Shown here: one piece after another, positions 979 to 61,145 of the stretch
Numbering within the stretch: the first letter of the stretch is position 1
How the letters are laid out: each line of letters opens with the position of its first letter
Position numbers and translations under genes: made by a program
Notes under the pieces: model-generated
Told to the model about the DNA's origin: nothing
The model's input: only the letters and a program-made list of their open reading frames with translations
Database searches by the model: none
Source of the DNA: Polytrichum commune
Taxonomy: Eukaryota > Streptophyta > Polytrichopsida > Polytrichales > Polytrichaceae
Reading direction: 5' to 3'
Assembly: GCA_950295325.1 (NCBI GenBank)
Contig: OX485803.1
Span: 58,605,554-58,669,553 of the forward strand
DNA length: 64,000 nt

Positions 979-2300
979 CTACTCAATCATATGTGGGATG
1001 ATGGAAATATTGTCTAAATCCATGGACGATTTCATCAAGAGTGGGATTGTTGGAAAATCCTCCTTATGCAACTTTATGCTCCACCACCCAAAAGATGCAT
1101 CAATATCATCGTGTGTGTTGCCCACCAATATATAAGACACAAACACCTCTTTGAAAATGTCTTTCACAACCAGCAAATACCAATAGGCAAACACAAATTT
1201 TTAATGTTTAGGCACAGTTGTCTAGTTGGACTTGTATAGTGGGGGGCAATCATTTTTGCAACCACATGCTCTTTAAGGGTAACTTGCAATGAATTCAAGC
1301 ATGTATTATTTCCATCCAACATTGCCTCATATAGAGGTGTTGATTCGGTACTCTCAAATAATAATCTTGAGGAGTACGCATACAATTTCTCTAAACATGC
1401 AAAGGGCATGCAAATGATCCAATGATATGGTTTGAATTTGCCGGATACAAATCAAGGGCATAATGGGCAAACTTGACATCACCATGGCCATTGGCAATCA
1501 TCCCTACAAGAACAACCCAAAGACTCGATATATAAGCAATCCAAATTGATTACGCCTATGCTCCTAAGTACCGTAACAAATAAATAGAGTTGTGGAGCCC
1601 CACAAGATAAAGATTCACTAGTTATGAGACATTGAAGAGAATCATTTTCCTTGTAGTCGGAACATATAGCTTAAAGAGGCCATGCATAGCCTTGATCCAA
1701 TGCATCAAAAATGGTGAGGTTGTTTTGGCATGGTCCATTTTATTGTGGATGACCATGAGGACCTCTAATGGCCTAGCGATGGACAACGCTTTATTTGTAT
1801 AATAATCATTACAATACGTCTCTTGCATGTTCACATGCGTAAAATAGTTCAATTGATGTGCAACGTAAGACTTAGTCCTAATCATATGTGCATCCCGAAG
1901 GCACTTCAATGTCTCACATATGCAACACCAAGTAAACTTGTCACCGCATTTTTCTATAATGTGGTCACTAAAGTTTGTTTTTTTAATTGTGCTTAATTTG
2001 GACAACAAAATGGGATCCAAACCAGCCTTTTCACCAATCGCATTTACATCCAACAAGAGGTATTTCCATTGCATTCCCGTGGGAAAAATATATTCAACAA
2101 TATTCTCCCCCATCGGGAGTGTATGTGTTTTGTGCTACATTGCATCAGCAAGAGGCACAATGATGGCGGCTAGAGTAGCAACTACTTGTCGTGTTGCTTC
2201 CTTAGGTTTTATTGGGCCCAAATCCCATGGTTACAAACACCCATGGCCTTCTTTGGTATTAGATGTTTGTTTATATAATTCCATTTTAGACACACCATGA
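979..2300 (-). pseudogene. DUF7869-type transposon-like gene, broken
   Basis: Three minus-strand blocks read in order as one protein. The first, 2113-1622 (163 codons), has a Cys cluster near residues 63-66 (CCIC) and the block IHNKMDHAKT at residues 122-131. The second (about 1560-1420) reads like GHGDVKFAHYALDL. The last (1194-979) carries VGNTHDDIDASFG. From memory, the pair 'D(K/G)MD-A-KT' followed by 'VG(H/N)THxDIDxxF' is typical of the DUF7869 family, found in many copies in plant and animal genomes and thought to be transposon-derived. The coding trace continues upstream to about 2300 with stops. Frames change between blocks and several stops are present, so this is a decayed copy. Catalytic function is not established from the sequence. 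Confidence 0.65.
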
Positions 2301-22800: not shown

Positions 22801-25800
22801 TTATTTTTCTCCAAGACCAAGAATCACAATGCAATATTAAATACGTACACATCTATATAGTGTACATATTTACATTACGACATCGTTCAAGCATGTTTGT
22901 ATTTGTGTCATGTGTTTGTCTCGATCGCACTTGTCTTTTATTGGGTACATATCATAGCTATAATTATTAGGAACAAGTGTGCCGCCACTTGTCCTAGCTT
23001 TAATCTTCTAGTGCGCCACTTTGTTCACCAACAATACTAACATGTCATCCACACACTCCAATTCCACCCATCAAATTACTTATAAGACTATTTATATTCA
23101 TGCCATTGATTCATGTATCTATTATTAAGATTCCAAATTGTTGGTGCATTGACACACAATTCATTTATATTGTTTAGCGTTCCTTCATTGAATATAGTAT
23201 TATATGCAAACTTGCAAAGTACCTCATTGCTTAAGCACAATATAGTAGTGTTTGTATTCATCTCCTCTGTGTTTTGTGGTTGATGTTGTTCACCACTCCA
23301 TCCTTTCACATATCTCCCTTCTACTTCCCTCTGTGCTTTCACATTGTGCGTATAGCTGCTATTAGGAGTCCGGACAATTGTTTTTGTTCGTTTGTGTTTT
23401 CTGGTGATCATGAATTTTAAAGGGGGTATGATATTCAATCCATGGAAGGTGCAATTGACTAACTATCCCAATTAGTGCGTGTTACTATTATGTAGTACTA
23501 TAACTATTTAACGAGAATGTAATTTTTTTGTAAAGCAATGTAATTCATGTTCTATAATGTCCGATCAATCTATTGAACTTGTAGTAGTAAAAATTGAACT
23601 CCTCAGCAGTGTTCTAGATTAAAGTCTTCACTGCCCTTTAAACGCAGTTTGGCCCTTTAAAATCTACCTCTCTCAAAACAACCCTACAAAACACAACCCC
23701 AAATTGAAAGTGAAGATGTCACTTGAAGTGCTCAATAAAAGGAATGAATAGGTCAACTAGATGATGTACAAGCTTCAAAGGAAGTAAAAGCTCCCACAAC
23801 CATAGTGGTTGAAGTTTAAAACAACACAATGTTGAGAAGGGGACTAAAGCAACTACCATGGAATCCAAAGAACACACACATACATTGTTTTTGTTGTTGT
23901 TGTTGTACAATCATCACATATTTCCGTTCTCCCATGGAAACTTCATCTATGTCATTATCCCACATACCCAATTACATTTATATTAACACTATTATCAATG
24001 CATTGCACCGAGATGAATAAGTGTTTGTTTGTCATATATTATTCATGGTTTTCCATGCCAAAGCACAAGGTGCAATGCTTGCCTTTCAAAAGGTGCACTC
24101 TACTGAGGATAGGGTTAACATCTAACCAAAGAAACACTTGAACTAAAGGGAAACACATGTGCTTGTTTTTTGAGGTTGGTCGCTATCCGGGGGTTTACCT
24201 GCTTTCTTTGCTCCAAAGCACATAAGAAAGATATCTACGAGACACTTGATATATGTTTTTCATCAATTTTTTGACTTGTAAGCATAATGTATGGATTGGT
24301 TTCCTTTGAATTTTCATGCTGGCTTATATTCTAGGTATTCTCATAGGACTTAATTTATGAGAATCTATGATAACAAATGGTGAAATCGACTTAAGAATGA
24401 TTAGCTTAGGGGAGAGTGTGTACACTTGATGATTGTCAACATGAGCTCCAAGTATACACTAAGCAAGCATGTTTTGAGATATTACATGATAAATTTAATA
24501 ATTTGAATGGTGTTGTGTTCATAGATGGATAATAACATTACAACATTTGTTATTGAGGGTGTAACATCTAGTGTGGCTTCAAGACCTTCAAAGCTAAGTA
24601 TTTGGTGTATTGTGACATTAAGCTTTGCAATTTTTAGACCTTTCACATACTTATTGTTACAGGAAACTAGGAGAAGGAGCTACATGTCTATTTCATTCTT
24701 ATGAAAAATTGTGCGTCTTGGGTTCATGAAATTTTGGGGCTACAATATTTATTGGTATGATCATTGATTTCTTATCGTATGGGTGTGTCTAGATTCAAGA
24801 CTTGGGCATTAGTGTGTTTGACGTCCAAGGAGTGGTGCCTCCAACATCTTTTGAAAGTTTGAGAGTTTTGTGGTTGATTTGCTCATTTTCTATGTTTTAA
24901 AACGAGGTAAAATTTTTTTTTGCACCCTTGACAATGTTTTTGTTGTGTTCATTCTTTATGGAGCTCAAGATGTTTGTGATTTCCCTATTCATGTGATTAA
25001 AAGGGGGTGGACATAGAAGCCAATAAGGATTTGTATGTGCCATATGTATGTAGGGGATGTGTCTTTCTTTGTTCATTGTTGTTTTCTCATTTATTAAGGA
25101 ATCATAACTTTCATTCCCGATGATTTTGAAGTGTGTTCTTACTTTTCTGAATGTTAAACCTTATCTTGAACTATCTTATAAGATGTAATATAGATACAAT
25201 TGTGAACTTATTAAGGATAGTTGAGTTGAGATGAGGGAGGACGGTGTTTAGGTTGTTTATGAATATGAACACATCACATTCACAATTTTTTGAGATCATG
25301 GATTGAAAAATGGTAGTTATAAATGCCGTAGGGAGTTTTAGAAGTCTTTCTACAATCTTGAGAATATCTGGCACCATACACACAATTGGTCATCCTCTAT
25401 TATTCTAGGCCTTTGAATTGAGACAACCATCAATCTCCAGACATTGTAGAGGGTTGAATGAGAGAGGAAGAGTTTCGTAGAATTTAATGAGGAGGTGATG
25501 TGAGTGTATTTTGTAAAGTCGATGCTACATTGAGAGAGTTATTATATTTTGGCGTGGACTTTGACTCAGTATTCTCGTGGGGTGGCTTCTCTGTTTTCTT
25601 TCTTTTTCTTTTTTCCTTTTCTCTCCGATTGACAAAGTCATAATGGGACGGTGAATATAATTTGTTGTGGATATCTCAGATTCGTGTTTGAGTTTGGTGA
25701 TTGATTGATTGATTGATAATTACCTTAACCTGGAAGCAACACTGACTAGATGAGTGTCTTAAGAATGACCTCAAAAGAAGGAAACTGTGATTTTTGGTCA

Positions 25801-35235: not shown

Positions 35236-35399
35236 CCACGTAAGAGTAATAAGTAACAGGAACCCCACCAAGGACAACTTGCCAAACCGCCAGTCCGAGG
35301 ACCACCCCCATCCCACCAACCAAAGACAACCCTCAAACTACCAAGTGACCTGCCAAAAGTTAATCAACCTAGCTACATTGTATTAATTCCAAGCGATGT

Positions 35400-36660
35400 G
35401 CAAATTGTTCCTCCTACAAAGCATGTTCCTAGCTCCCCGCGATTGGTTGAAACCTTTGAGAAGCTTCAGCGTAGTAAGCACTAATCTTTACAAATTTATT
35501 GAGGCTCACCCAAGTTGCTTTGACATACACAATGAGGCCATCCCAAACGTGGTGTCTAACCTTGGACTTGTGCTATTGTTCATGGTTGAACACCCTAACG
35601 TTGTGCTCAATCCAATTCATTAAAAGGGTGATATCATTAAGAAGGTGTTGAATCTTCATTTTCTTGACAAACTTCTTAAAAGTCCTTTCCCCAAAGAGGG
35701 CTTGTTTCCGATGAAAGTTGTCGTAGTTGCCAGTTCTCACCCCACATAATTCATGCATAATGAATGTGGCCCACCTCGAAACTCTCCAAGCTTGAGTGTA
35801 GTCCCAAAACTTGTGTTAGGAAGACAAAAACACGCAAAGGCAACCATAAAACATTGACCGGGAGAGGCAAGGTGAGGTGATGTTGGTGTAGGTAAGAGGG
35901 AGTGAATTGTGTAGACCATTGCAAGACAAACACCGGATCCTCCTCTCCATATGAGTACAATCCTACCCATTAGCCAGAGTGAGTGATGTCCATGTTGTCT
36001 TCCAACAAATGCCACCATTATTCAATGACTTTGGACGTGAAGGGGCCCAATCCTCGGCATCCATGTGGGTGACTTTAAATTTAGCCTAAGTGACATCCCA
36101 TGTGATGAATGTACAATGTTCACTATCCCAAATGTCATCTACACATTGAATGCATCAAAGATAGAGCTTGTGGGCCCTGGCGTAGGAGACCTTTGTCAAT
36201 AAAATCAAGGCCGTCAAAGCACCAAATATTAGAGTGGAGCAATTCCATGAGATTTTCAGGAGGAAGTTGATAAAGGCCTTTAACCATAACCTTTCAAGAT
36301 TTTTGATGTGAGCCCAAACTCTAGAGCTAGAGACGCTTTGGTGTTGTTTTCTTGTAAACAAGTCTAGACTAACTCATAGTTTCTTCCTCGTTGTGGTTTA
36401 AACCTTGCTAGCCTATAGCAGAGCATAAATTGAAGGTCAAGTTTGCCCAACTCCATGGCCTTAATCATCCACATGCACAAGAGGTTGGTCTTGGCAAAAG
36501 CGAGATCCACAAGTCCAAGGTCTCCAAATTTCTTCTTCATGCAATACTCCTTTCAAGTAACCTTCGTGGGGGTGAGTTGCTCATGGCCTTACCAGAGGTC
36601 GTTATGGATTGCACCCCTCATCTTTGTGAGGATCTTGTTGGAGCCCCCCCCCCCCCTAAT
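35400..36660 (-). pseudogene. LINE reverse transcriptase, C-terminal part
   Basis: The minus-strand trace reads KVTWKEYCMKKKFGDLGLVD (about 36590-36530), the post-catalytic region conserved in plant L1 reverse transcriptases, followed by TNLLCMWMIKAME. Downstream come the zinc-binding C-terminal region and NWIEHNVRVFNHEQ near 35620-35578, like the W-x-E-x-N-x-R-x-F motif at the end of plant LINE ORF2. It is broken by several stops and frame changes. The active-site block is not in this segment. Confidence 0.75.
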
Positions 36661-37385
36661 TATGATAAAGAATCATAGAGTAAAGAGTAAAACATGGTTG
36701 CAAATAACTATTCTACATGCTAGTGGAAGTTTCTTAGTGCTCCAATAATCCAATTTCTTAGAAATTTTGGCACAATGGAAATGGTCAACATCGGTGGTGT
36801 GGAAGTCAAGTCCAAACATGCTAGCAAGTAGTTTAGATAAGTTCCCCTCTAAGGCCCATTTATGGTCGTAGCTTGCAAGCCATGTGGGTTTATGTGTATA
36901 CTTATCAAGCTAGTAGGTACATGATTTCTCCCTCCATTCTCGAGTTTTTCCTGTGTATCGAGTTTTTTTTTTTTTTTTCTTTCAAAACTCCCTTGCTTTA
37001 TGTTTGTTGTGCTATCCACATAATATTAATCAATTAAGTATGTATGTTGAGTGGGGTTGGGAACAACTTAGATCTACTCGGAATTAAACTATGTTTATTC
37101 TCATGATAGTGCATTGCACTAGCAAATTCATGCTAAAAAAACTTCTAGTGAAGTAGTGTACTCAAATTATTAGAATGAAATGGCTTATAGTAATTGAATA
37201 ATTTTATGTATAATAGCAAGAGATATGCCTAAGTTTTTTTTAAAGGCCTCCTTTGGGAGGCTTTCCCAATGTTGCCGTAATTCATAAGCAAATTCCCCTT
37301 GTAGGTGGGCCACGTTCCATTGAAGTATCGTCTTCCTAATTTCTTTTATGCAAACACAAAGTCCAAGTTAAACATGTGCATGGCC

Positions 37386-37922
37386 TAAGAGCATCCTCAG
37401 TGGATCTAGGTAAAGCTCACTGCAAACCAAAACCTATCTTTTGACTGACCTAAAATTAGAAACTGAAATTACCATCATTAGAAGCACACCTAAATAAACG
37501 TGAGATATTTCTCAAGAAAAAAGAATTGTAAAAATTTGACGTAGGTGAAATCCCTCATTGAAAACACCACATTTTCAAAATTTAGAGGGAGTGCACCAAA
37601 TCTTGCTTAAAAATGGAAAGATCCTCCCACACTCCCTCCAAATTTTTGAATAATAATAGATGAAATTTGGAGGGAGTGTGGGAGGATCTTTCCATTTTTA
37701 AGCAAGATTTGGTGCACTCCCTCTAAATTTTGAAAATGTGGTGTTTTCAATGAGGGATTTCACCTACGTCAAATTTTTACAATTCTTTTTTCTTGAGAAA
37801 TATCTCACGTTTATTTAGGTGTGCTCCTAATGATGGTAATTTCAGTTTCTAATTTTAGGTCAGTCAAAAGATAGGTTTTGGTTTGCAGTGAGCTTTACCT
37901 AGATCCACTGAGGATGCTCTAA
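37386..37922. mobile_element. Near-perfect hairpin MITE (PIF/Harbinger-like)
   Basis: Element 37389-37919 (531 bp). The two arms, 37389-37645 and 37663-37919, are 257 bp each and reverse complements of one another with one difference seen (AGAAGC versus AGGAGC), separated by a 17-bp loop. The ends GAGCATCCTCAGTGG are flanked by TAA on both sides (37386-37388 and 37920-37922), the TTA/TAA target duplication of PIF/Harbinger elements. The first eight bases equal the end of the Harbinger element at 51691. Non-coding. It lies inside the L1-type LINE. Confidence 0.95.
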
Positions 37923-38370
37923 CCGAGTAACCGTGTATGAAGTAAGATACTAAATTGATGCCTTGATTCATGTTGAGTGGAGAATAACATATATCAAGTC
38001 TTGCAAGCCAACTTGTCTTTCCCCTTTTGCCCATTATTCCAAGAAAATTATGGGGCCCCTTGATACAAATGAATCATGAAATTGAAGGGCATTAAGGAGG
38101 TCATTCCAAATAAACATTTCTAGGTCACTAATGCCCCCTTCCCACCTGACTCTAGTTAAGACCCAAAGTATTTCCTAAAAACCGGGTAAAGCTCCCTCGG
38201 TTATAGCGGAGGCATCCGACTATCCCAATGCACCTACAAGAACTTGCTCCGGAGATTTTCAAGTAGGTTTTAGTTAAGTAGCTTTCACACATGTTCATGG
38301 TTTTATCTACCAAGCAATGAATGTTGGGTAGTTTTTGTCCCATCGCCAAATGCCTTACTACTCACCTATC

Positions 38371-39190
38371 TTACCATCGGTTTTTGTTAATGAAGCTCCT
38401 CGTGCCCTCATAGCTAAGACTAAAAAGCAACCAATCACAAGGGTGGGAGGCGACACTTTTAAAGTTCCTATATTCTTGCCTCATGTTTAGGTACCGATGG
38501 GAGGGTCGGTGGTTGAGGCTTAAAACCTCCACTTTTAAGCCATGCCACATCATTTGCCACCTAGGCTCGGCACTAAAAAGAGCCGTATGTGTGAACCCTA
38601 GATAACTAAAACTACTTCTAACTAATGTCAGGTGGGAATGCCCCATAATTATCCTACTGCAATCATTGGACTTGTCATTGGGTCTCTCTGTCATATTGAG
38701 ATCACCTTCAATTATCCAATTACAGTCCTTAGGTAAAGGGTCTACCATTATGTTCCAAAGATGCCTATGCTCCGTGGGGATGTAGGGTGCATAAACACTT
38801 GAAATCCCAATATATATCCCCCTCAAAACCTTCCAGTTTGGTCCACATTACTCTATTGTCATACAAAGCTCCATGCATTGTAACTAACCTAGCAAGTTTG
38901 TTGGACAATAAGATCCCAACCCCCCCCCCCTTTCATGGTGCATTAGGGTTAAACCAACTCCTTTCACCCAATGCCTCTTCAAAAATCTAGCTAGCACATC
39001 CTGGCATAAGTCTCTTACCTAGGTTTTCCAGTAACCTACCTCTAAGCTTGTGCTCTTGGATCATAACAATATCAATTTGGGGATTTTATTAGTTCATAAA
39101 GATGCCTTTCCTTTTAAAGATGCTCTTTGGGTCGCTGAGGCCACGAAAGTTGTGGGTAATAAGATTTCACTTTACAAATCGATTAAAGTG
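38371..39190 (-). pseudogene. LINE AP-endonuclease domain
   Basis: The minus-strand trace begins HNFRGLSDPKS (about 39160), then IDIVMIQEHKLRG (about 39082-39040) with the catalytic Glu, and SVYAPYIPTEHRHLW, then IIEGDLNMTE (GDLN at about 38706-38695), the Asn-containing motif of exonuclease-endonuclease-phosphatase folds. The enzyme would nick target DNA to prime reverse transcription. Stops at several positions and an 11-C run (38920-38930) break the frame. The longest intact piece is 38826-38371. Confidence 0.8.
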
Positions 39191-41450: not shown

Positions 41451-43250
41451 AATCACCATGTTATTGACTGATAGGAACTTCAATACAAGCATCGATGGAG
41501 ATGGCGTATTGAATCCATGGTTTGCCCCCCTGAAGACCCACCAAAGACCATCATTTTCCCGCACAAGCGACAAAATCTAGTAAGCTCCTCAATCACACCT
41601 GTGCTCCATGATTATTAGTATTATGGTGACATCCTTCATTGAATACCCACGTGGCGCCCCTCCTTCCTTGCAGTCCAGGCAGTAGGGGGAAGTCCTCCTA
41701 TCTATCAATATGATTCAATCCACAACTATCTGTTGCGAAGAGTACCTTCAAATGAAATCTTCAAAGTGATCGGTCTACTATCATAAGTGGCCCATGGATG
41801 ATGTCAAGAACCAGGAAGTGCGAAGCTGAACTTCTTCACATATTGGAGTGATCATCGACTCTTTTATTTCAAGAAAGTCCCGCTACCAGTACAATGCTTT
41901 ATAGTGGGAACCCACTCACGTTGCCTTACCGAATGGGATAAACCAACTGGGGAAATGGATGGCCTTTTTCATGAAGTTAGAGTTATCTAAATCACTAGAG
42001 GACAAAAAAAGGAAGGGGAAAAAGAAAAAATCATTTTCTTTTATGGCAAAACGGCGACTCTTAGGTGGGACCCAGATAAGTGCCCTTGGGTTGAAGGGTG
42101 CCACTTCCTTGACTATACCACGGAGTCTGGTAGAGACTTCATAACTAAAAGGACTGAAGGGATCCCGCGCTCAAATTTGTCTCTGGTGACAATGTAAAGG
42201 GAGCTTGTTTGGTCCTTATGAGGGCATGGTTACTCTAGTGACTAATGACCATGATCACCACTTTCTACATGCTCTCATTGGTTCTAAAATAAGTTGCGGC
42301 CTCACTTTGTTTTACACGAGATCACCAAAACAAAGAGTAATCATGTCTAAAAATGCATAAGAAAGTGACATGGAAGTGATATGATATCCTACATGTCTAG
42401 CGATGGATAATATTTGGTGGTTGCCTGGGTTAACTGTCTCGGGAAAAAAATTGAAGGTGACCATGTTGGGGAGTAAAAACCTATTTCATCACCTTTTAAT
42501 GTGATAATATTATTTTTTAATAAAAAAATTTGTATGGTTTTTTTAAACAAATTCTTATTTTTTAAGAACACTATGTACCTATCCAAGTCCATTTTTTTTT
42601 ACTATGTCGAGTTACCAAGGTTTGCGAGAAATGAGAATTTAGGAATTCTCTTGGTCATGGGTCTTCGGACCGATGACCATGACCACTGAAACAATTTTGA
42701 ATCAATTATTTCCATGGCCCTTGGTTAAGGGTGTAAGACGGCCCTTAGGTGAGCACTTCCATGGGCGGACCCTTTTGGAGAGTGGGGTGACAAAATGGAC
42801 CTCTTTGCTTTTTGTACACATGTTCCATCAATTTGGACGTGGGATTAAGAGTTGTTGTAAGTAGACATCACACTTGTAAAACCCTGTGGAGTTTTCCTAT
42901 GTCCTTAAGCTCTCGGCAAAGGATTCCAAGATTGTTTGTGTTGGTCTTCTAGACTATGCGATCTTGTGATTCAACATGTTGGATTTCTTTATGTAGAATG
43001 TGGGTGCAATCATACTCCTAATACTAGGTTTGATGCAACCAACAAATACCCTTGAGCATCCTCACCCTTCCCATGCCAGACTAAATTTTGAAATTGCTTT
43101 TGCGTATTTCAACTAATCCCTTCGAGTCTTATGAATTTGTTTTCATTTCACGTGTATTAGATTTATAAGGCAACCCGTACATCCTAGTATGCGACCATCA
43201 AACTATCGGAGCATCGCCTTTGACAACCCCATACATTGATATGTACCTCA
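41451..43250. other. Intergenic stretch, nothing recognised
   Basis: No supported gene or bounded repeat. A run of Lys codons near 42005-42030 is low complexity. Confidence 0.4.
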
Positions 43251-44752: not shown

Positions 44753-46394
44753 CACTTCTAAATCTACATGTGTTAATCACGGAATGATCTGAAGACCAGT
44801 GGTCTAGAACTCCATACTTGGCAACCTAGAGGAGGAGGCTAGTAGGTGGGCCCCACATGAGAAGATGATAGCACCTAGTTGGTATATACGAACCTTACTC
44901 AACCTTATTCCATCTATATTTGGGTGAGTTTGTACACATTCTCACTAGAATTTGGTGGGCAATGGGCCTACATGGAAACTCACCCTTACTAGGATGGGTG
45001 GGCTAAGCAAGCCTTGCATAGGCTTGCCAACATTTAGGACATTGGGTTTCATGTGCATAGCCTATGTAAGATCCTTAAATTCTCTCAATATTGGAGAGGT
45101 GAAAAGAGGAGGCCCCAAAAGTTTCACCCAACTTTCAAAATAGGCTCCAATTGTAGATGCTCAATCTAGGTAACAAGATGGAGGAGGAATTGCAAAAGAT
45201 GGAGGACAGCTGAGAAGAGCTGCCATGATGAGAGGCTAGGGGAGGAAGACATAATTCCACTCATGGGAACGGCAACAAAGGCTTGGGAATGGCACCGAAG
45301 GTTTGAGAACCGCAAACAAGGTTTGGAAACCGGCAACAAGGCTTGGGAATGGCAACGACAACTTGAGAACATAGGCTAGATTGAACTCGACTCTTGTTAA
45401 TTGGGTTGTGTGCTAATGATTACCCATGTCAATTGGGAACTGTATCTAGGACCATGTTTCTTAGTAGTGAAAGCCTTTCGAATGCAGCCCTTGACATCAA
45501 CACATATGGTAAGGATAGCAGAGTCATTACAAATTGAAATATTGGCACAATTCATAAGGAGTGAAAAACATCGTCAAACCTTGGCATGAAGCCAAGCAAG
45601 TCTACCTTGACAAGTGAATGCAAGTGGCATCCCTCCCTCCCTCCCTCCTGATATATATGTCGGCTTGTGTTGGCACAACCACAACTGAACAACCTCTCCG
45701 TTTGTGAAGTGTTGCCTCCTCTTAAGGGTGGGCTCTATCTCGGGTAATTGAAATAATGTTGGTTAAGGCAACCATGTGTAAGATGGTTAGTGAGTGCCCT
45801 AGTTTGTCAAACTTGAGGGTTTAGATTTGAAACCCCACGAAGCCCCAAGAGAAGTTTGTCACGCATGAGATTTGCTATTCCTTGGGATATGTGAAGCCTT
45901 GATTAATGAAGTCCACCCCCTCATACCACAACATATCCACGTGAAGCAGTTCCATTTGTGTAAGGGAAGGGATTTCGTAGATACCTTTCACCATAGCCTT
46001 CCAAGCTTTACCAATACCTTGCATCCAACAACACCTTGGTTATTAAACCAATCAAAACTAACCCCCCAACATCTTCCTCTTTGTGGATTAAAGCTATCCA
46101 TTCTATGCCTAAGCATAAGATTTGCTATTCTTGATCAAGACTTTTAACAAGACCTACCAACTGCCTTCGCAACTCTCGGGGTTTGTAGTGTTTATGCAAG
46201 AGGTGGGGATGCAGGAGGGGTGTTAGCTGGATCTCAACGCCCATTGGGTTGTGTTAGTGTGTCAATCGCTAAAGGACCTGAATTGTTGTTTTAAATGATC
46301 CAGGGTTGAAACCATGAGAGACCTCTAATGAAGTGAAAGCAAGATGTGCACATGCCCTACTCTGGATGGAAACAGGGTGGAAATATTGAGGACT

Positions 46395-53622: not shown

Positions 53623-54853
53623 TCAGATTCTTGAGCCCTGCAACCATGTGGATGGAGGGGAGATTTGCCTAGGTACAAACTGTTCCCGAATTGCAGGGGT
53701 CCAAAACTGGCCAAAGAGTTCATGAGGATCAGCAGAGAGTCGTCGACGTTGTGATGGGGGAGGGTTAATTGCGAAGTCATTAGGTTGAGAATCTAGGATG
53801 GAGGTTGTATCCTCATCACGATCCGAAGCTGGTTGGCCGAAGTCATTCCCAAAAGCATTTAGATCAGCTACCCTCCTCCTGTCTGCAAATAAGTCGGAGG
53901 AATCATCCTCACAATCATCATCAGCATCATCTTCTTCATTCAAATCTCCTCTAAACCCTAACCCTTGTGTTGGTGCAGGTGCAACAGGCGTGTTGGAGCA
54001 GACTCCAAACCGAGGAGGAGCAAGCTCGTTGGAGGCAGCAACTTCGGCAGCAACCTGTGCCTTGAGCTTTGCAAGCTCTTGGGTCCTGCGGAGGTGGAGC
54101 CACTGTCTAGCAAGGTCACAGGTAATGTTCTTATTCTCTACTGTAAACAAGCTAAAAACATTTTGCTGAGCAATTTGCTCAGCTTTCTTCAATGTAGCTG
54201 CAGCAAAGTCAGTTGTAGCTTTTGCATTAGCGCGCAAAGCTAGCTCCTTCCCCTTACTTTGTGCATGCTCGTTTTTTGCCGACTTAGCACCCTGTGGTCT
54301 TGTCTGTGCAGGTGGCGATTCGGTGGAGGGAGCCTGGCCATTCGGAGAAAGCAGATCGCGACAATCAACAGGCAACCCCTCTCTTGAGGGCGGATCAAAC
54401 CCTCCACCCTTTCGCTTGCTCATAAATATTGCCGCAAACCTAGGATAGCTCTTTAACAACAACCAGCAATGTTTTAGAACAAATGTCTTCCCACATTTTT
54501 GCTTGTACAAGCTCATAGCATCTAATACAAAATCATCCTCACTCTTCCCACTCTCATTCAGATCTCTCACTGACTGATAGCAACCACTGAACTTGGCGAC
54601 AGATTGCTTGATGTCAGACCATTTTGTCTCTAGAGACCTAGCAGGATGATCAACTCCTCCCTCGGGTTTGTGTCTAGCATAGTGCGTTGCTACATTGATC
54701 CAAAATTGTGCATTCTTCTGCCCTATCCCTCTCCTGGCATCGGTGGAAGTATGCATAAAACTTCGGCAACACTGTTCTTCCTCCTCCGGGCAGAAGTTCC
54801 TGCCCTTCTTGATCCTCCCACCCGTTGCAGGCACACCCCCCCCTTCCTGACAT
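53623..54853 (-). CDS. Harbinger-type Myb/SANT protein
   Basis: Minus-strand frame of about 400 codons ending at 53623. The N-terminal part is a Myb/SANT (trihelix-like) domain: FCPEEEEQCCRSFMHTSTD, FWINVATHYARHKP, RSLETKWSDIKQSVAKFSGC and KHCWLLLKSYPRF. This matches the second protein of PIF/Harbinger transposons, which recognises element ends and helps import the transposase. An Ala/Lys-rich helical region (about residues 200-270) and an acidic Asp/Glu patch follow. The frame is open from a GTG at 54834. A better start, ATG at 54853 in CCACCATG context, is one base out of frame across a G8 run (54843-54836), so an indel or sequencing error there is likely. Confidence 0.85.
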
Positions 54854-55589
54854 GGTGGAATAAGTCCAAAGTTGGGCTAACTGCCGGATGGCGTTGGCGG
54901 GCAGAACACAGTACCCGAGGCCAATATACCCGAAGAGCTGCTCCCAAATGCCCGGTCCGGCACCCTTTATGGCGTTAGCGTCGACTGGTGGACGTTAGAA
55001 CTTGGCGTCCTGGGCACCGGATTTCCAGGAGTGCCGTTCAACTGACTTATACCTCTGCTGGTGGGGACGCTCTAAGTCTCTATCACCATACTTGCGAGCT
55101 TCTTCCATTTCTCGACAGATGCTTCATACTTTCACATATCAAATGCATAAATACGTCCTCTTCATGACTAAAATGTTTACATCATCTTGATTAGGCATAT
55201 TCACTCGCTTGCCACTACAAAGCAAATTGCCCAATGTCTTTTAAAGGTCACAAGCCCTTAGTGTAAAATCAAATGGATTAAAATTTTAAAAAAATCATCA
55301 GAAGAAAAACGAAGAAGAAAAGAAGAAAAACTTCAGTCTCCGGAGGAGACCGACGTGAATTAAGTGTCTGTTCGATCCACCCCAATCCGATGCCCACAGG
55401 ACAAAGGTATGGAAGTACAGATCTACTCCTCCCTTTCGAGAGTAGACACTATAGTCACCAGTCACCAGTAACAAGGACCATAATGGTTAGTTTTTAGGTA
55501 TTATTAATATGAGTGTGGCCATCCATTCTCTGGTGCATTGTTAGTGGGTGGAGTGGAGTGGCTTAGTTGTTAAGGCTTTATAGCTTTAT

Positions 55590-55992
55590 CTATGGGGGGT
55601 CTAGTGATTGGGGAAGCAGTTGGTGGTTTTCTATTCTTCTTTTGTGGAGGAGGATAGCCATGGCATATTTTAAGGTGATAGTATTGATGTTTTTAAAGGT
55701 GTTTTTAATGGTAAGCATAGGTATTTTAAATTTATTTTCGAGTGATTTCATTGATGGGATGTATGTAGTGGCTCTGGCGCCTGCAGTGATTATAATAAGG
55801 GGGTCAACTTTCCATCCTCTGGCAGCAATACTGTCTATTAATGGTCTGTATTTACTATTTTTTGCTTCGATTGTTTCTGGTGAGAATCTGTCATTACAGT
55901 ATGTGAATTCGATGAATTGTATGGTAAGGTTGGGGTCTATGTCTGTGGGGGGGGGCATTTTGGTATGATAATCCTCTAACACAAAGGATATC
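55590..55992 (-). pseudogene. Restriction-like endonuclease, C-terminal part
   Basis: Frame 56099-55590 contributes the second half of the endonuclease: TIQFIEFTYCNDRF (residues 59-72), with Glu64-x-Thr66 as the (D/E)-x-(K/T) position, then GWKVDPLIIITAGARATTY and a helical Lys/Asn-rich tail ending LDPP before TAG at 55592. The first Asp of the motif (RLDIL, about 55992) lies in the preceding frame, the switch being at nine consecutive C (55955-55947). R2-type enzymes use PD...D-x-T; here Pro is replaced by Leu (CCT to CTT) in copy 1, while copy 2 keeps RPDIL. Confidence 0.65.
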
Positions 55993-57552
55993 AAGTCTAA
56001 ATCTAGAGTTACAATGGCATCTTTGTGTACCGCATGTACAAGGGAGTAGCCAATTGGGAACGGTGTTTTCTTGGGGTGTATTATTGAAGGTGCCAACATT
56101 CATGAGAGTATAGCATCGAGAATTTCCGGATGAGATTAATAGTTTCCTAATTTCCCATACTGCTTTGTTGTGTCTTTTGACATGAAGTGAATGTATGTGT
56201 TGTTGCTTACAAGTAAGTAGTACATGTAACCATGTATCCGGTTCGTATGAATTGCAAATGGAGCACGTAATAGATGGATATGTTTGCCTGCCAAAGAATA
56301 GTTGTTTTCGAGCATTACCCATATAAGTTCTAGTTCGGAATTTGATGAGGCATGATTTTTGTTTATCTGTGATTTCCGGGTTTTCCCAAAATTCATTAGA
56401 AAATTCTTTGTCTATATCTGCATTTCCTGTCCATTTGTAAGTGTTAGGGGTTTGTGTGGCCATGTTTTCCAAGTTATTTTCCCTATCATATTTTATAATT
56501 TGTTTTTCTAGGAATCTAACGGGGTCTTTATCAGGAACGTCCATCATTGAGGCCCAAACATCCTTTTGGTAATAATATGGGGTAGCATGGGCATGTTCAT
56601 ATGGGTGAATGGCAATTATGTGGTCTAGTTCTAGGCCTTCTTTTGCCAATTTATCTGCTTGTTCGTTGCCGTCAATGTTGACGTGTGCTCTTACTTTGTA
56701 TAGTGTGATTGGTTGTGTCCGATTTTGAAGTAGTTGTACCATGGTGGCGAGGGTGATTTGATATGGGTGGCTATTATGCAGTGTGGGGTGTTTAATTTGT
56801 GTGTTAAGTAAATATAATACATTTAGATTGTCGGTAAATATATATGCAGGTTCGTTTGGGTATAGTGTATTAATGATTCTTAATGTTTTATGAATAGCTA
56901 TCATTTCTGCTCTTAATATGTTTTGGTGTCCATGGAGTCTTTTGGAGATGTTAAGGCCTTTAGGGCTATAGATACCATACCCGGCTCTTTCTCTTCTCCA
57001 TACTCCAGGGTTAATTTCTTTGGGTTTCATAAAAGAACCATCTGTATAGTAGCTGAATTGAGAGTGAAATTTTAGTCGTAAGTTTGTTTGGTAATTTGGG
57101 AGTTGTGGGATAGGTATGTTATTATTTGCGGATGCGTTTGGATAGTTTAATTTAGCCCATTTTTTGTTGGGATTAACGGCGGTATTTAAGGGGATGGGTG
57201 GTGCAGTTTGTGTATGAATTTGTAATATTTGAAGGTTATTCGCTATGTCTATGAGTTGATTCATTTGTTCGTAGGTGCCGATGTGGTTGTTTTGGTGGTG
57301 GATGCAGAATATTCGCAGTGTTGATACTTCTTTCCTCGTGCTATTGAGTTCGGGAGGGATTGTAGGTTCTTCGTATATGATGGTATCTGCGGCAAAGTGG
57401 GCAATGATGTGTGTATCCGGGAATGGGCCAGTGTATGGGTTAAAGTTGTGGTACCAGTCAATATCCTTTGAGATAAGTAAAGTGATTGTATTGGGGTCAT
57501 TTTTGGCCGCAATACGGGCCCAGTGGATGGTTTTTGTAAGTCTGTTGCGCTA
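55894..57552 (-). CDS. RNase H with CCHC knuckle and start of RLE
   Basis: Open frame to 55894; the first ATG is at 57264 (456 codons), but the same frame stays open upstream to 57552. RNase H (residues 70-210 from that ATG) shows the four acidic residues: TDGS Asp75, RAEM Glu120, TDNL Asp145 and GNEQADKLAKEG Asp204. It is followed by MGNARKQLFFGRQTYP and a CCHC knuckle (Cys334, Cys337, His347, Cys352), then KRHNKAV, a Cys cluster CTC-x4-CHC (409-418) and RLDILC (Asp425). In R2-like elements a CCHC knuckle directly precedes the endonuclease. The enzyme would cleave the RNA strand of RNA-DNA hybrids and nick the target. The last 30 or so codons are out of frame after the C9 run. Confidence 0.75.
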
Positions 57553-57578
57553 TGGGGGTGGGCATATCCAATTCCCTT

Positions 57579-58449
57579 CTATTTTTGGTCAAACGTGTTT
57601 CCTAAAGATCCAAATATTCTATCCCTAGAGAATGGTGAGTAGAATTGGGTGAATTGTGTAGGGCATGTAACTGGGGATGAGAAGTATGAGTGGTTGATGT
57701 TAAATGATGTTATTAGGAAATCCAGTATTGGGGTTGGTATTGCATATTGGGCACGTTTAAGTGGGTCATTTTTAGGAATACGGTATTTGTATCTCTGGTA
57801 CAGCCAGACGATTTCGGTTTCGAATAATTGGGTAGGTGATTCTAGGCTATGTGGGGTATTTTTAGCTTGGTGATATTGTTTCCATAACCACAGTAATTTA
57901 GTTTTTGGGATGGTGATGAGATGCCGGCCATTGTCTTCATATATATGGGCGACGTCAAATTGTGTTTGGATAGTGTTAGTATTTGTTTCGATGTCACTCT
58001 CTGGGTTGCATTCATTAATGGAAATATGTGCCAATGGAATTATTGTGGCAAGGATAACGTATCTAGTATCTCTATGTTGTTCTGTGGAGAAGTAGACATT
58101 GATAATGTTTGAGAAGTGTTTGTGTTGCCTTTTCGTATAATATTGGGTAAGTAGTGCGGTGTTGTGGCGACTAGTATTGGCGTCACAATAGGGGAATAAA
58201 TCTATTTGGGTACGCCATTTGTTGTATGTGTTATTATTTGGTGTAGTCCATTGGCATAGGTATGATGTGTCTATTCTTTTTATCCCATTAGGATCTATGA
58301 GTTGTCGTTGTTTGTGATCGAGTATTGTATGTATAGAGAATTGACGGGGGTTGTTAAGCATGTTATTGGGAGGGGGGGTAGGTGGGGGATAGGGGGGTTC
58401 GGGGGGTTCGGGGGGTGTACAGGAGGGGTTGGGTGTTGAGGGAGAATGT
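57579..58449 (-). pseudogene. Methyltransferase-like segment (PCIF1-type?)
   Basis: The ATG frame is 58361-57579 (260 codons); the same frame is open upstream to 58449 through a Pro-rich stretch. The C-terminal part has HSYFSSPVTCPTQFTQFYSP and DRIFGSLGNTF, then in a continuing frame a GYAHP-like motif. The pattern 'FASP...C..F.S.F..D..FGS.G.F....G...NPPF' is that of PCIF1-like N6-adenine methyltransferases. The trace resumes in the RNase H frame with TITLLISKDIDWYHN and DTHIIAHFAAD. Where NPPF is expected, a stop (TAG near 57579) and a His in place of Asn are seen, so this copy is probably inactive. Family assignment is from motif resemblance only. Confidence 0.45.
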
Positions 58450-58519
58450 TATGGTTTATTATAATGTAATCATTCTTTAGGGTTTGTGGGGGTAGTGGTG
58501 TAGGCATGGTAGGTTGCAT

Positions 58520-59694
58520 TCTTGGTGGCAGGTAGGGTAAAAAATCATCATATTTTATTTAGATATGAAAATGCATCATGGAGGACATAAGAAAGAAAGT
58601 GTTCATAGTTTTCTTTACGTGTTGGCGTTTGTGTATGTTAATTCAATAGATTTTGAGCACTCAAATTTATTTATAGGGCTTGAATTAGAAAATTCGGTTT
58701 TTTCTTATTGCACAATAGTACACAAAAAAACATAATTTTTGCGATAGCTTCAACAATCCCATTCTATATACAACATGAATAGTATTTGAATATGTGTTTT
58801 GGATAAGTTAACATGGATTGTCCCCCCGGGTCCGCCACACATTATGCTTGAACTACCTTCAATAGGCATTCCCAAAAAACCCTTGCAATTTTGGCCAACA
58901 TTATTTATACCAATCATGTGAAATTTCATGTAGATTTTTCACCCATTGAAAATGTTATAGGTTGTAGCCCAAAAACTATCCTCCTCTAAACATAAAGCAA
59001 GGGCACATGACACTCTCAACCAATGACAATTCAAGAATCCTCGTGAGCCTTGGCCTGATGGCTTTTATGTAAACATGCCATAGAGTAGATGGTACTACAT
59101 CATTTATGGTATTTAGTTTCACATACACTAGTTGCAAAAGGGCCTAAACTAGATGCCTAGAGGTCTCAAAGTGCCACGTCCGCTAATGTTAATTTTGTAC
59201 TATTTGTCCACATAAGTAACATTTTAAACTAAAATTTATTTACATCATGACATGTAGTGTATCACATTGGATTACTTGAGATGGTAGTTTTTTCATTTTA
59301 GTATGCAAGTGGAAGATATTATTGGGCATACTAATGGCAAGTGTCATGTGTTTACATTGTAGTATGCAAGAGCAAGATATTCTTGAGCATGCTAATGCCA
59401 AGTGTCATTTCTGCACACTTTAGTCAACTTATAGACCAATGTGTAACATAGGCATACATCTCATAACACTATTGACCATACTCATGCCAAGATTCCAGTC
59501 ACCACACTTGAACGCCAAAATAGTCATGAGGTGACATCAATGGTGAATTTGTTGGTCGTTGGTGTAACCGAACTTATGCCTCAAAACATGGTAAGTGACA
59601 TTATTACGCATCTAACACTGAACATCATAAAGGTGGTAGAATCAACGCTCTTACATCTCAAACACTAAGGACCTATCGATTATGATAATGTCAA
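58520..59694. other. Intergenic stretch between the two RLE copies
   Basis: AT-rich, with no RT or other retroelement coding trace found on either strand. There is a repeated phrase near 59310-59400 (TGCAAG-GAAGATATT then CATGCTAATGCCAAGTGTCAT). Confidence 0.5.
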
Positions 59695-61145
59695 TCACCT
59701 TAAGAAAGAAAAGAAAAGAAAAAATAACGCCCGTACTTTCACACGAGCATGACTACGAGCCCGCTGGCCTCATACTAATCACGGGATTCCGTGATGTAGT
59801 ATGTGGTTTTATGCCTCCGTTAGGAGGTGGGCTCTGGTGGTTTCCCTAGAAGTCCATTTTGATTAAGGTGGGGGTACGGGTGGTTGTTTATTGTCGAGTT
59901 TTCTTTTATTAAGTACCAAGTACGTGAGGTATTTAATAGCGTTTTGGTGTATGTCTTTCATGAGTTTTTTGATGTTGGATTTAGGGATTTTTAAGTCCGT
60001 TAGTTTTTGGATGGAGTGTTCGTGTATGGCTCCTCGTACTCCTGCGGTGATTGTTATAACGGGGTTGGTTTTCCAACCCTTGTTGTGAATGTCGTGATTT
60101 AGTGGGTCGTATTTGGCGTGTTTCTGTACAATGGCATGTTCAGGGAATCTGTCATGGCAGTAGGTGAATTCGATAAATTGTACTGTGTGGTTGGATGATG
60201 GTAATACGGGCAGAGTGATATGATTTGGGGCACCTATCAAGCATAAGATGTCAGGTCTAAGTTTAGCTTGACATTGACATGGTTTTTGGGGGCATGTACA
60301 TGCTAATAACCATTCTGGTACTGTGGTTTCTTGTGGCTGGTTGTTGAGATGTCCGGCATTGGTTCTTGTGAGGAACCGTGTGTGTTTGTTTGCTTGTAAT
60401 GTTTGTGTGATCAGATGTACTGCTTTGTTATGTCTTGCGATTCGGAGACCTTTTAAGTATGGGTGTTCGCATATTGATAGTAGGTGCGGCCACGTGTCTC
60501 TCTCATTTTTGTGGCAAAGTGTGCAGTTGGGGTTTGAATGTGTGAGGGGCCAAAAAATATTTTTTCTATGGTTGCCCATATATTGAGCGTATCAAAATTT
60601 TAATGTTTGGGTGATTTGGGTATCGGGTATTTGATCGTTATTCCAAAAGTGATTAGAGAGTTTTTGGTTTATTTGGGTGTTTGAGAGCCATTTATCTACG
60701 TATGGGAATTTATTTATGGCTAAGGTTGTTTCTAAGTCGTCGTGTGCTTTTGTTATGACTGTGCGTAAGTTGCGGATGGCTCCATCGTGTGTGCCTGTGG
60801 GACAGCTGGCAAGCCAGTAGGGGGTGGGGCGGGCGATGTGGATGTGTGGGGTTTGTTTTGGTTTTTCTAAGTTGTTCCCTTCATTTGCTAGATCATCGGC
60901 CAGTTCATTTCTAGTGATGCCCGTGTGCGCTCGGACTTTATGTATGTGGATTTTGTGGGGGGTCCAGTAAATCTTCCTTACTATGGCGGCTATAAGTAGT
61001 TTGTCAAGGTGGTGGTGTTGTGATGTTGGATGTTGTATGTTGTATGTGGTTATTTATGAGGTATATACTGTTGAGGCTGTCGGTAAATATGTGTGTTTCT
61101 GTTTGTGTGATTTTTAACATCATGCTTACGTGTGTTTCACCTTAA
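59695..61145 (-). mobile_element. Dualen-like element copy 2, 5'-truncated, 9-bp TSD
   Basis: Minus-strand element 59704-61136. The flanks share TCACCTTAA (59695-59703 and 61137-61145), a likely 9-bp target duplication. It starts inside RNase H and runs through the CCHC knuckle and endonuclease to a 3' UTR of about 160 bases with small inverted repeats (CCTCC-TAAC-GGAGG; CACGG-AATC-CCGTG), ending in a (TTTTC)n tract and not poly(A). Confidence 0.75.
59863..61115 (-). pseudogene. RNase H fragment, CCHC knuckle and intact RLE motifs
   Basis: The trace begins with HIFTDSLNSIYLI (RNase H Asp), has a frame shift near 61020, then KVRAHTGITRNELADDLANEG (another catalytic Asp) and NHFWNNDQ. A TGA at about 60596 replaces Arg (copy 1 has KFRTRTYMGN), then the 238-codon frame 60579-59863 follows. 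In it are Cys19, Cys22, His32 and Cys37 (CCHC), IARHNKAV, Cys cluster 94-103, RPDILC (Asp110) and QFIEFTYC (Glu137-x-Thr139). The P-D and E-x-T positions are kept, so the endonuclease core is better preserved than in copy 1. It ends in a Pro-rich tail. Confidence 0.75.

What the first reader, a model, noticed from the sequence alone, without database searches (positions are those of the whole stretch)
55590..61136. Retroelement family joining RNase H, CCHC knuckle and R2-style endonuclease in a plant-like genome
Two minus-strand copies share the same order: RNase H acidic residues, a CCHC knuckle, an RHNKAV block, a Cys cluster, RPDIL and IEFTYC. RLE-bearing non-LTR elements are, as I recall, typical of animals and some algae, while land plants mostly carry AP-endonuclease L1 and RTE elements. 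RNase H plus RLE suggests a Dualen/RandI relative or a new clade.
Basis: partly seen in the sequence, partly recalled or inferred. Interest (0 to 1): 0.9.

Follow-up and report, generated by a model that had tools for sequence, protein, structure and literature searches.

The report
Moss jumping gene with two endonucleases
The window holds two worn copies of an abundant and recently active moss retrotransposon that encodes both known kinds of LINE endonuclease and, unexpectedly, a chromatin-reader-like domain and a conserved but apparently disarmed relative of the mRNA-cap methyltransferase PCIF1.

Summary
Two decayed minus-strand copies (A 55350-58376, about 80% identical to an intact copy; B 59707-61117, about 79-82%) carry RNase H, a CCHC knuckle and a C-terminal R2-type RLE. 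The host is a moss by its LEAFY protein (408 Mb, seven large contigs). Copies elsewhere in the genome have intact ORF2s of 2372-2924 aa. ORF1 (747 aa) is followed by ORF2: 2A-like NPGP peptide, APE endonuclease, RT, chromodomain-like domain, PCIF1-like domain, RNase H, CCHC, RLE. Three copies with 99.3-99.6% identical bodies end in a (TATC)n tail and lie between 10-12 bp target-site duplications at unrelated sites, so they moved recently and are not site-specific. APE plus RLE plus RNase H is the Dualen/RandI plan; a source read here lists RandI in green algae and only L1 and RTE in flowering plants. The PCIF1-like domain has lost the catalytic NPPF motif in every copy read, yet is about as constrained (dN/dS about 0.09) as RT or RLE. 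This is a new variant of a known kind. Membership of Dualen is probable; the RT tree with genuine Dualen sequences could not be run. The roles of the two added modules are inferred.

The parts
55350..58376 (-). Copy A: 5'-truncated, frameshifted copy of family A (part of ORF2 from the chromodomain-like domain to the stop codon, plus 3' UTR remnant 55350-55459)
   Evidence: blastn about 80.7% to intact copies L021-L023 over 55591-58414, plus 3' UTR match; tblastn 79-83%
58113..58376 (-). Copy A chromodomain-like region (IHTILDHK...YLCQW...W)
   Evidence: Profile A4: 12 of 13 PDB hits are chromodomains, best E 0.013; Pfam Chromo in 4 of 11 members, best E 0.0016, below the curated cut-off
57531..58112 (-). 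Copy A PCIF1-like domain (Pfam stretch 57588-57851), with a frameshift near 57540-57580
   Evidence: PF12237 E 8.7e-11, over the curated cut-off
56632..57057 (-). Copy A RNase H
   Evidence: PF00075 E 1.3e-13
56209..56265 (-). Copy A CCHC zinc knuckle
   Evidence: CSIC...H....C aligned with the invariant CCHC of relatives
55593..56208 (-). Copy A RLE (PD decayed to LD; frameshift near 55950)
59707..61117 (-). Copy B: 5'-truncated copy of family B (end of RNase H, CCHC, RLE, start of 3' UTR)
   Evidence: blastn 79.4% to L027; tblastn 80-82%
60877..60969 (-). Copy B end of RNase H
   Evidence: PF00075 E 3.7e-5
60469..60525 (-). Copy B CCHC zinc knuckle
59866..60468 (-). Copy B RLE, reading frame open, all candidate catalytic residues kept
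24599..25145 (-). Third, older fragment of family B (RNase H end to CCHC)
   Evidence: tblastn E 5e-16, 38-44% identity

Best explanation
These are dead copies of an autonomous, recently active non-LTR retrotransposon of the Dualen/RandI kind in a moss. Its mRNA encodes ORF1 (747 aa, unknown fold) and a polyprotein ORF2 from which a 2A-like StopGo sequence can release the enzyme part. Two endonucleases (APE before the RT, CCHC-RLE at the C-terminus) can nick the target; the RT primes on the nick and copies the RNA from its (TATC)n tail, RNase H removes the template, and 10-12 bp target-site duplications are left at non-specific sites. Between RT and RNase H lies an acquired module: a chromodomain-like domain, which I infer tethers the complex to chromatin, and a PCIF1-like domain whose methyl-transfer motif is lost but which is kept by selection, which I infer binds capped or 5'-end RNA or partner proteins rather than methylating. 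Shown by sequence: architecture, intact frames, target-site duplications, tail, recent copies, purifying selection. Inferred: target-primed reverse transcription, StopGo activity, division of labour between the two endonucleases, and the role of the added module.
For: Intact ORF2s of 2625 aa in three copies and of 2372, 2663, 2919 and 2924 aa in others. Pfam RVT_1, RNase_H and PCIF1_WW in ORF2; APE families over the cut-off in L024 (Exo_endo_phos) and L027 (Exo_endo_phos_2). Catalytic motifs intact: APE (ETK, GDFN, SDH), RT YADD, RNase H D-E-D-H-D, RLE CCHC/RHN/PD/E/K. RLE profile hits only R2Bm in PDB. RT best PDB match is R2 (3e-30 and 4e-35). Chromodomain: 12 of 13 PDB profile hits. PCIF1_WW up to 55.6 bits genome-wide, and the only PDB hit of that region is PCIF1. 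2A-like motifs GDIExNPGP, GDIKPNPGP, GDIHPNPGP. TSDs of 12, 12 and 10-12 bp abutting a (TATC)n tail at three unrelated sites, element length 11.97-12.70 kb; bodies 99.3-99.6% identical. dN/dS: RT 0.06, APE 0.07, RNase H 0.05, PCIF1-like 0.09, RLE 0.10, against linker 0.32 and pre-2A 0.54. Host is a moss: LEAFY best match is P. patens LFY.
Against: The RLE match to R2Bm is weak (E 0.38) and an AF2 model from three rows failed (pLDDT 39.8). The chromodomain match is below Pfam's cut-off, and a Foldseek search with a low-confidence model (pLDDT 54.9) returned no chromodomain. The Chlamydomonas Dualen founders are reported, as I recall, to carry a cysteine protease; none was found here. No genuine Dualen RT was available for a rooted tree.
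Confidence: 0.85

Rival explanations
1. A separate new clade of LINEs, not Dualen, that combined APE and RLE independently (for example an APE LINE that captured an RLE, or the reverse).
For: RT is 20-27% identical to both R2 and L1 and forms its own long branch; no cysteine protease; carries domains not described for Dualen in the sources read.
Against: APE, RT, RNase H and RLE together, in the green lineage, with a non-poly(A) tandem-repeat 3' end as for green-algal RandI (PMC3747384), is most simply common descent with Dualen.
Confidence: 0.2
2. The PCIF1-like domain is still an active N6-adenosine methyltransferase with a divergent catalytic loop and modifies the element's own RNA cap.
For: Strong constraint on the domain (dN/dS about 0.09); one subfamily keeps the P-P (A-H-P-P-N, L024).
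Against: The catalytic N and F of NPPF are replaced in every copy read. In human PCIF1, changing N553 and F556 (APPA or SPPG) inactivates the enzyme (PMC10544176).
Confidence: 0.12
3. An ordinary plant L1 or RTE LINE misread through shared RT and RNase H.
For: L1 elements are common in this genome and in the window.
Against: Moss L1 copies lack RNase H and RLE and form a separate clade with human L1 (97-100% support). The element's RNase H has D-E-D-H-D, while the archaea-like RNase H of plant L1 has R for H (PMC4640811).
Confidence: 0.01

Closest known systems
Dualen/RandI non-LTR retrotransposons (Chlamydomonas)
   Same: Both APE and RLE in one element, RT, RNase H, green lineage, 3' end in short tandem repeats rather than poly(A) (PMC4640811, PMC3636483, PMC3747384)
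   Different: Moss host, chromodomain-like and PCIF1-like domains between RT and RNase H, 2A-like peptide, no cysteine protease detected; presence of these extra domains in algal Dualen could not be checked
R2 non-LTR retrotransposons
   Same: C-terminal CCHC plus RHN plus PD-(D/E)XK-type RLE; R2 is the best PDB match of the RT
   Different: R2 lacks APE and RNase H and is specific for 28S rDNA; these insert at unrelated sites
PCIF1/CAPAM cap-specific m6Am methyltransferase
   Same: Homologous segment over Pfam PF12237, including FGS.G and the position of the catalytic loop
   Different: NPPF replaced by [AG]-[HF]-P-x-[NDTS]; no WW domain found; embedded in a retrotransposon polyprotein
Methyltransferase-bearing retrotransposons (DNMTs in Symbiodinium LINE/DIRS and charophyte Gypsy elements; Dam-like enzymes in DIRS)
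   Same: A retroelement that captured a methyltransferase-fold protein and keeps it under purifying selection (PMC5890265)
   Different: Different methyltransferase family, and apparently without catalysis
Chromoviruses (Gypsy LTR elements with chromodomains)
   Same: Chromodomain in a plant retroelement polyprotein (PMC6338049)
   Different: LTR elements with integrase; here a non-LTR element

Membership tests
Dualen/RandI | APE endonuclease upstream of RT | tested here: met
   PF14529 in L027 and PF03372 in L024 over the cut-offs, L021 E 8.8e-4; motifs ETK, GDFN, SDH
Dualen/RandI | RLE (PD-(D/E)XK) with CCHC knuckle at the C-terminus | tested here: met
   Invariant CCHC, RHN, PD, E, K; the profile finds only R2Bm in PDB, E 0.38
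Dualen/RandI | RNase H domain | tested here: met
   PF00075 5e-13 to 1.3e-14
Dualen/RandI | RT branching between RLE and APE groups, monophyletic with Dualen RTs | tested here: inconclusive
   Own long branch, separate from R2 and from L1 in an unrooted tree; no Dualen reference or outgroup available
Dualen/RandI | Cysteine protease domain (reported, from memory, for the Chlamydomonas founders; not part of the group definition in PMC4640811) | tested here: not met
   No protease family at E <= 1 in ORF2 or in the scanned part of ORF1
Plant L1 clade | L1-type RT and absence of RLE | tested here: not met
   RT clade separate from moss and human L1; RLE present
Active PCIF1/m6Am methyltransferase | NPPF catalytic loop | tested here: not met
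   [AG]-[HF]-P-x-[NDTS] in 24 loci read and in window copy A
Chromodomain | Sequence similarity to chromodomains and aromatic cage | tested here: inconclusive
   Profile similarity specific but below Pfam's cut-off; by inspection the central W is kept, the third cage aromatic is not, and the first only in family A

The most novel reading that the evidence does not exclude
A land-plant lineage of dual-endonuclease LINEs captured a chromodomain and a PCIF1-type cap-methyltransferase, turned the latter into a non-catalytic module kept by selection, and uses the pair to read chromatin at the target and to hold the capped 5' end of its own RNA during target-primed reverse transcription. This would be the first LINE known to combine these functions and a direct handle on how a LINE secures full-length insertion.
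Probability: 0.25. Interest if true: 0.85.

Novelty: new variant of a known kind. Interest (0 to 1): 0.66.

Why it matters
Dualen is used as the intermediate in the argument that APE LINEs arose from RLE LINEs (PMC4640811). Recently mobile, full-length copies in a moss would bring that intermediate into experimentally tractable land plants. A selected but catalytically altered PCIF1-like module and a chromodomain-like module inside a LINE polyprotein suggest that LINEs can capture RNA-cap and chromatin readers, which can be tested directly.

Tried and rejected
Scans of viral contigs (RLE and PCIF1-like profiles) and of prokaryote contigs (RLE profile) found no relatives, so this is not a viral or bacterial gene in those collections. 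AF2 on the RLE (3 rows) was too poor to use. AF2 on the chromodomain-like region from one sequence gave three strands and a C-terminal helix at pLDDT 54.9, and Foldseek on it returned no chromodomain; I give it no weight. ARAGORN and Rfam found no structured RNA in the intact element. A segment of a vertebrate PCIF1 from PDB gave one weak match in the genome (C4:784705, 36%, E 7.5e-4), too little to tell a host PCIF1 exon from an element copy. The literature searches found no paper linking PCIF1 to retrotransposons and none linking Dualen/RandI to mosses; the original Dualen and LINE-2A papers are not held.
Full report
What is in the window. On the minus strand, copy A spans about 55350-58376 and copy B about 59707-61117. 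The C-terminal frames carry CCHC, RHNKAV, a Cys cluster, R-x-D-ILC and QFIEFTYC-DRF-K-KY in one order. Both copies are broken: copy A has frameshifts near 57550 and 55950 and an LD in place of PD; copy B lacks everything upstream of the end of RNase H. A third, older fragment of family B lies at 24599-25145.

The host. The genome has 408 Mb in 64 contigs, seven of them large. A LEAFY DNA-binding fragment from it matches Physcomitrium patens LFY best (128 bits; 59 of 64 residues identical by my count from the printed alignment), ahead of other LFY proteins (109 bits or less). It is therefore a moss; the species was not determined.

Intact relatives. A protein search of the genome gave 79 scored matches at 80-100% identity and 5022 first-look candidates. 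Three copies (L021-L023) have an uninterrupted ORF2 of 2625 aa; others have 2372 (L027), 2663 (L026), 2919 (L024) and 2924 aa (L025). ORF2 reads, in order: a poorly conserved N-terminal stretch, a 2A-like motif (GDIEPNPGP, GDIKPNPGP, GDIHPNPGP), APE, RT, a chromodomain-like region, a PCIF1-like region, RNase H, CCHC and RLE. The core motif published in 2026 is (D/G/C/N)(V/I)ExNPGP (PMC12846837); GDIEPNPGP fits, the K and H variants do not and their activity is unknown. An upstream ORF1 of 747 aa overlaps the start of ORF2; the parts of ORF1 scanned have no convincing Pfam match.

It is a transposing LINE. L021, L022 and L023 are 99.3-99.6% identical over most of their length. Each ends in GGAGTTTC(TATC)n, directly followed by a 10-12 bp sequence that is repeated at the 5' end: CATTCTTAAC (12 bp if two tail bases are counted), TTTGAATTAGGA, TGGCCCCATAGG. 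Lengths are 11,967, 12,490 and 12,702 bp. In 300 shuffles of each 14-kb locus, the first 10 bases of the repeat recurred anywhere in 4-16 cases, so a match of 10-12 bases at the element's edge in all three is not chance. The three sites share no sequence. The 5' UTR of L023 is unrelated to that of L021 and L022 except for the last 195 bp. An exact 29-base 3'-end pattern occurs 124 times in the genome and 0 times reversed.

The RLE. In an alignment of five relatives and copy B, CCHC, R-H-N, P-D, E and K-x-x-K-Y are invariant. A profile built from it was run against all PDB sequences with E up to 10: the only hits are R2Bm chains, at the CCHC-RHN segment (E 0.38). The match is weak but specific, in the expected place at the C-terminus.

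RT and other enzymes. The RT matches R2 best among solved structures (E 3e-30 for A, 4e-35 for B) and human L1 less well (B: 3e-20; A: none at E <= 1 in the full-length search). Moss L1 copies from the same genome match human L1 best (4e-41) and lack RNase H and RLE. In an unrooted ML tree the element RTs form one group (100%), separate from L1 (100%) and R2. With no Dualen sequence and no outgroup this does not prove the Dualen position. RNase H has D-E-D-H-D, unlike the archaea-like form of plant L1 with R for H (PMC4640811).

The module between RT and RNase H. The downstream part matches PF12237 (PCIF1_WW) above the cut-off in L021, L024 and window copy A, and slightly below it in L027; 150 scored places in the genome exceed it. 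The profile's only PDB hit is PCIF1 (E 0.087). Despite Pfam's name, the matching segment is not the N-terminal WW domain: in the PDB chain it covers residues 287-368 of 496. At the position of the catalytic NPPF the element has [AG]-[HF]-P-x-[NDTS] in the 24 loci read and in window copy A. In human PCIF1, changing N553 and F556 removes activity (PMC10544176). So methylation is unlikely, but the domain is not decaying: dN/dS is 0.09 between L021 and L025, against 0.06 for RT, 0.10 for RLE, 0.32 for the adjacent linker and 0.54 for the pre-2A stretch; it is 0.09 and 0.16 in two other pairs, though synonymous sites are close to saturated there. The upstream part, IHKII...YLCQW...W...L, is chromodomain-like: 12 of 13 PDB hits of its profile are CDYL, CBX4, CBX8 and related chromodomains (best E 0.013), and Pfam Chromo matches 4 of 11 members (best 0.0016, below the cut-off). 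By inspection the central cage tryptophan is kept, the third cage aromatic is not, and the first only in family A, so methyl-lysine binding is uncertain.

How it probably works. Shown: an autonomous element with two endonuclease domains, RT and RNase H, recently mobile, leaving 10-12 bp duplications, not site-specific. From established knowledge of LINEs and R2 (PMC12222951): an endonuclease nicks the bottom strand, the RT primes there on the RNA 3' end, and a second nick presumably permits second-strand synthesis. Inferred: which endonuclease makes which nick; that 2A separates the N-terminal peptide from the enzymes; that the chromodomain-like part tethers the complex to chromatin; [quoted passage not shown] The last point is a guess of perhaps one in four.

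Comparison and novelty. APE plus RLE defines Dualen/RandI, and RNase H is reported from it (PMC4640811, PMC3636483). A 2013 survey lists RandI for green algae, with (ATT)n or (CTATTT)n tails, and L1 and RTE for flowering plants (PMC3747384); the moss tail is (TATC)n. Retroelements with DNA methyltransferases are known (PMC5890265), and chromodomains are known in LTR elements (PMC6338049). I found no report of PCIF1-like or chromodomain modules in a LINE, or of Dualen in mosses, but the library is partial, Repbase was not searchable, and algal Dualen could carry the same domains unrecognised. I therefore call it a new variant of a known kind.

Noticed in passing
window 35386-39175, 41877-42173, 45881-46119: Decayed fragments of a moss L1-type LINE (related to L057; APE, RT and C-terminal parts), on both strands.
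   Followed up: partly
window 53623-54876 (-): Open frame of 417 aa with a Pfam NAM-associated match (E 3.7e-8), likely a plant gene or transposon-associated MYB/SANT-like protein.
   Followed up: no
window 1622-2134 (-): Open frame of 170 aa of unknown kind; not analysed.
   Followed up: no
L023 compared with L021 and L022, 5' UTR: Nearly identical ORFs (99.3%) carry an unrelated 5' UTR except for the last 195 bp: exchange of the promoter region between young copies.
   Followed up: partly
L031 1291-1473 (also in L021): Tandem array of an 18/54-bp unit in the 5' UTR of family A.
   Followed up: no
L028 1456-7848 (+): This family B copy holds two 2A-like motifs (aa 14 and 281) with similar flanking sequence, an apparent internal duplication of the N-terminal region.
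   Followed up: no
G000:C4:784705-784929 (+): Only genome match to a vertebrate PCIF1 segment (36%, E 7.5e-4); could be an element copy or an exon of the host PCIF1 gene.
   Followed up: no
3' UTR of family A elements (L021, L024, L025): Conserved stretch with AATCGAACC resembling an antisense tRNA B box, upstream of a short GC-rich inverted repeat before the (TATC)n tail; ARAGORN finds no tRNA.
   Followed up: partly
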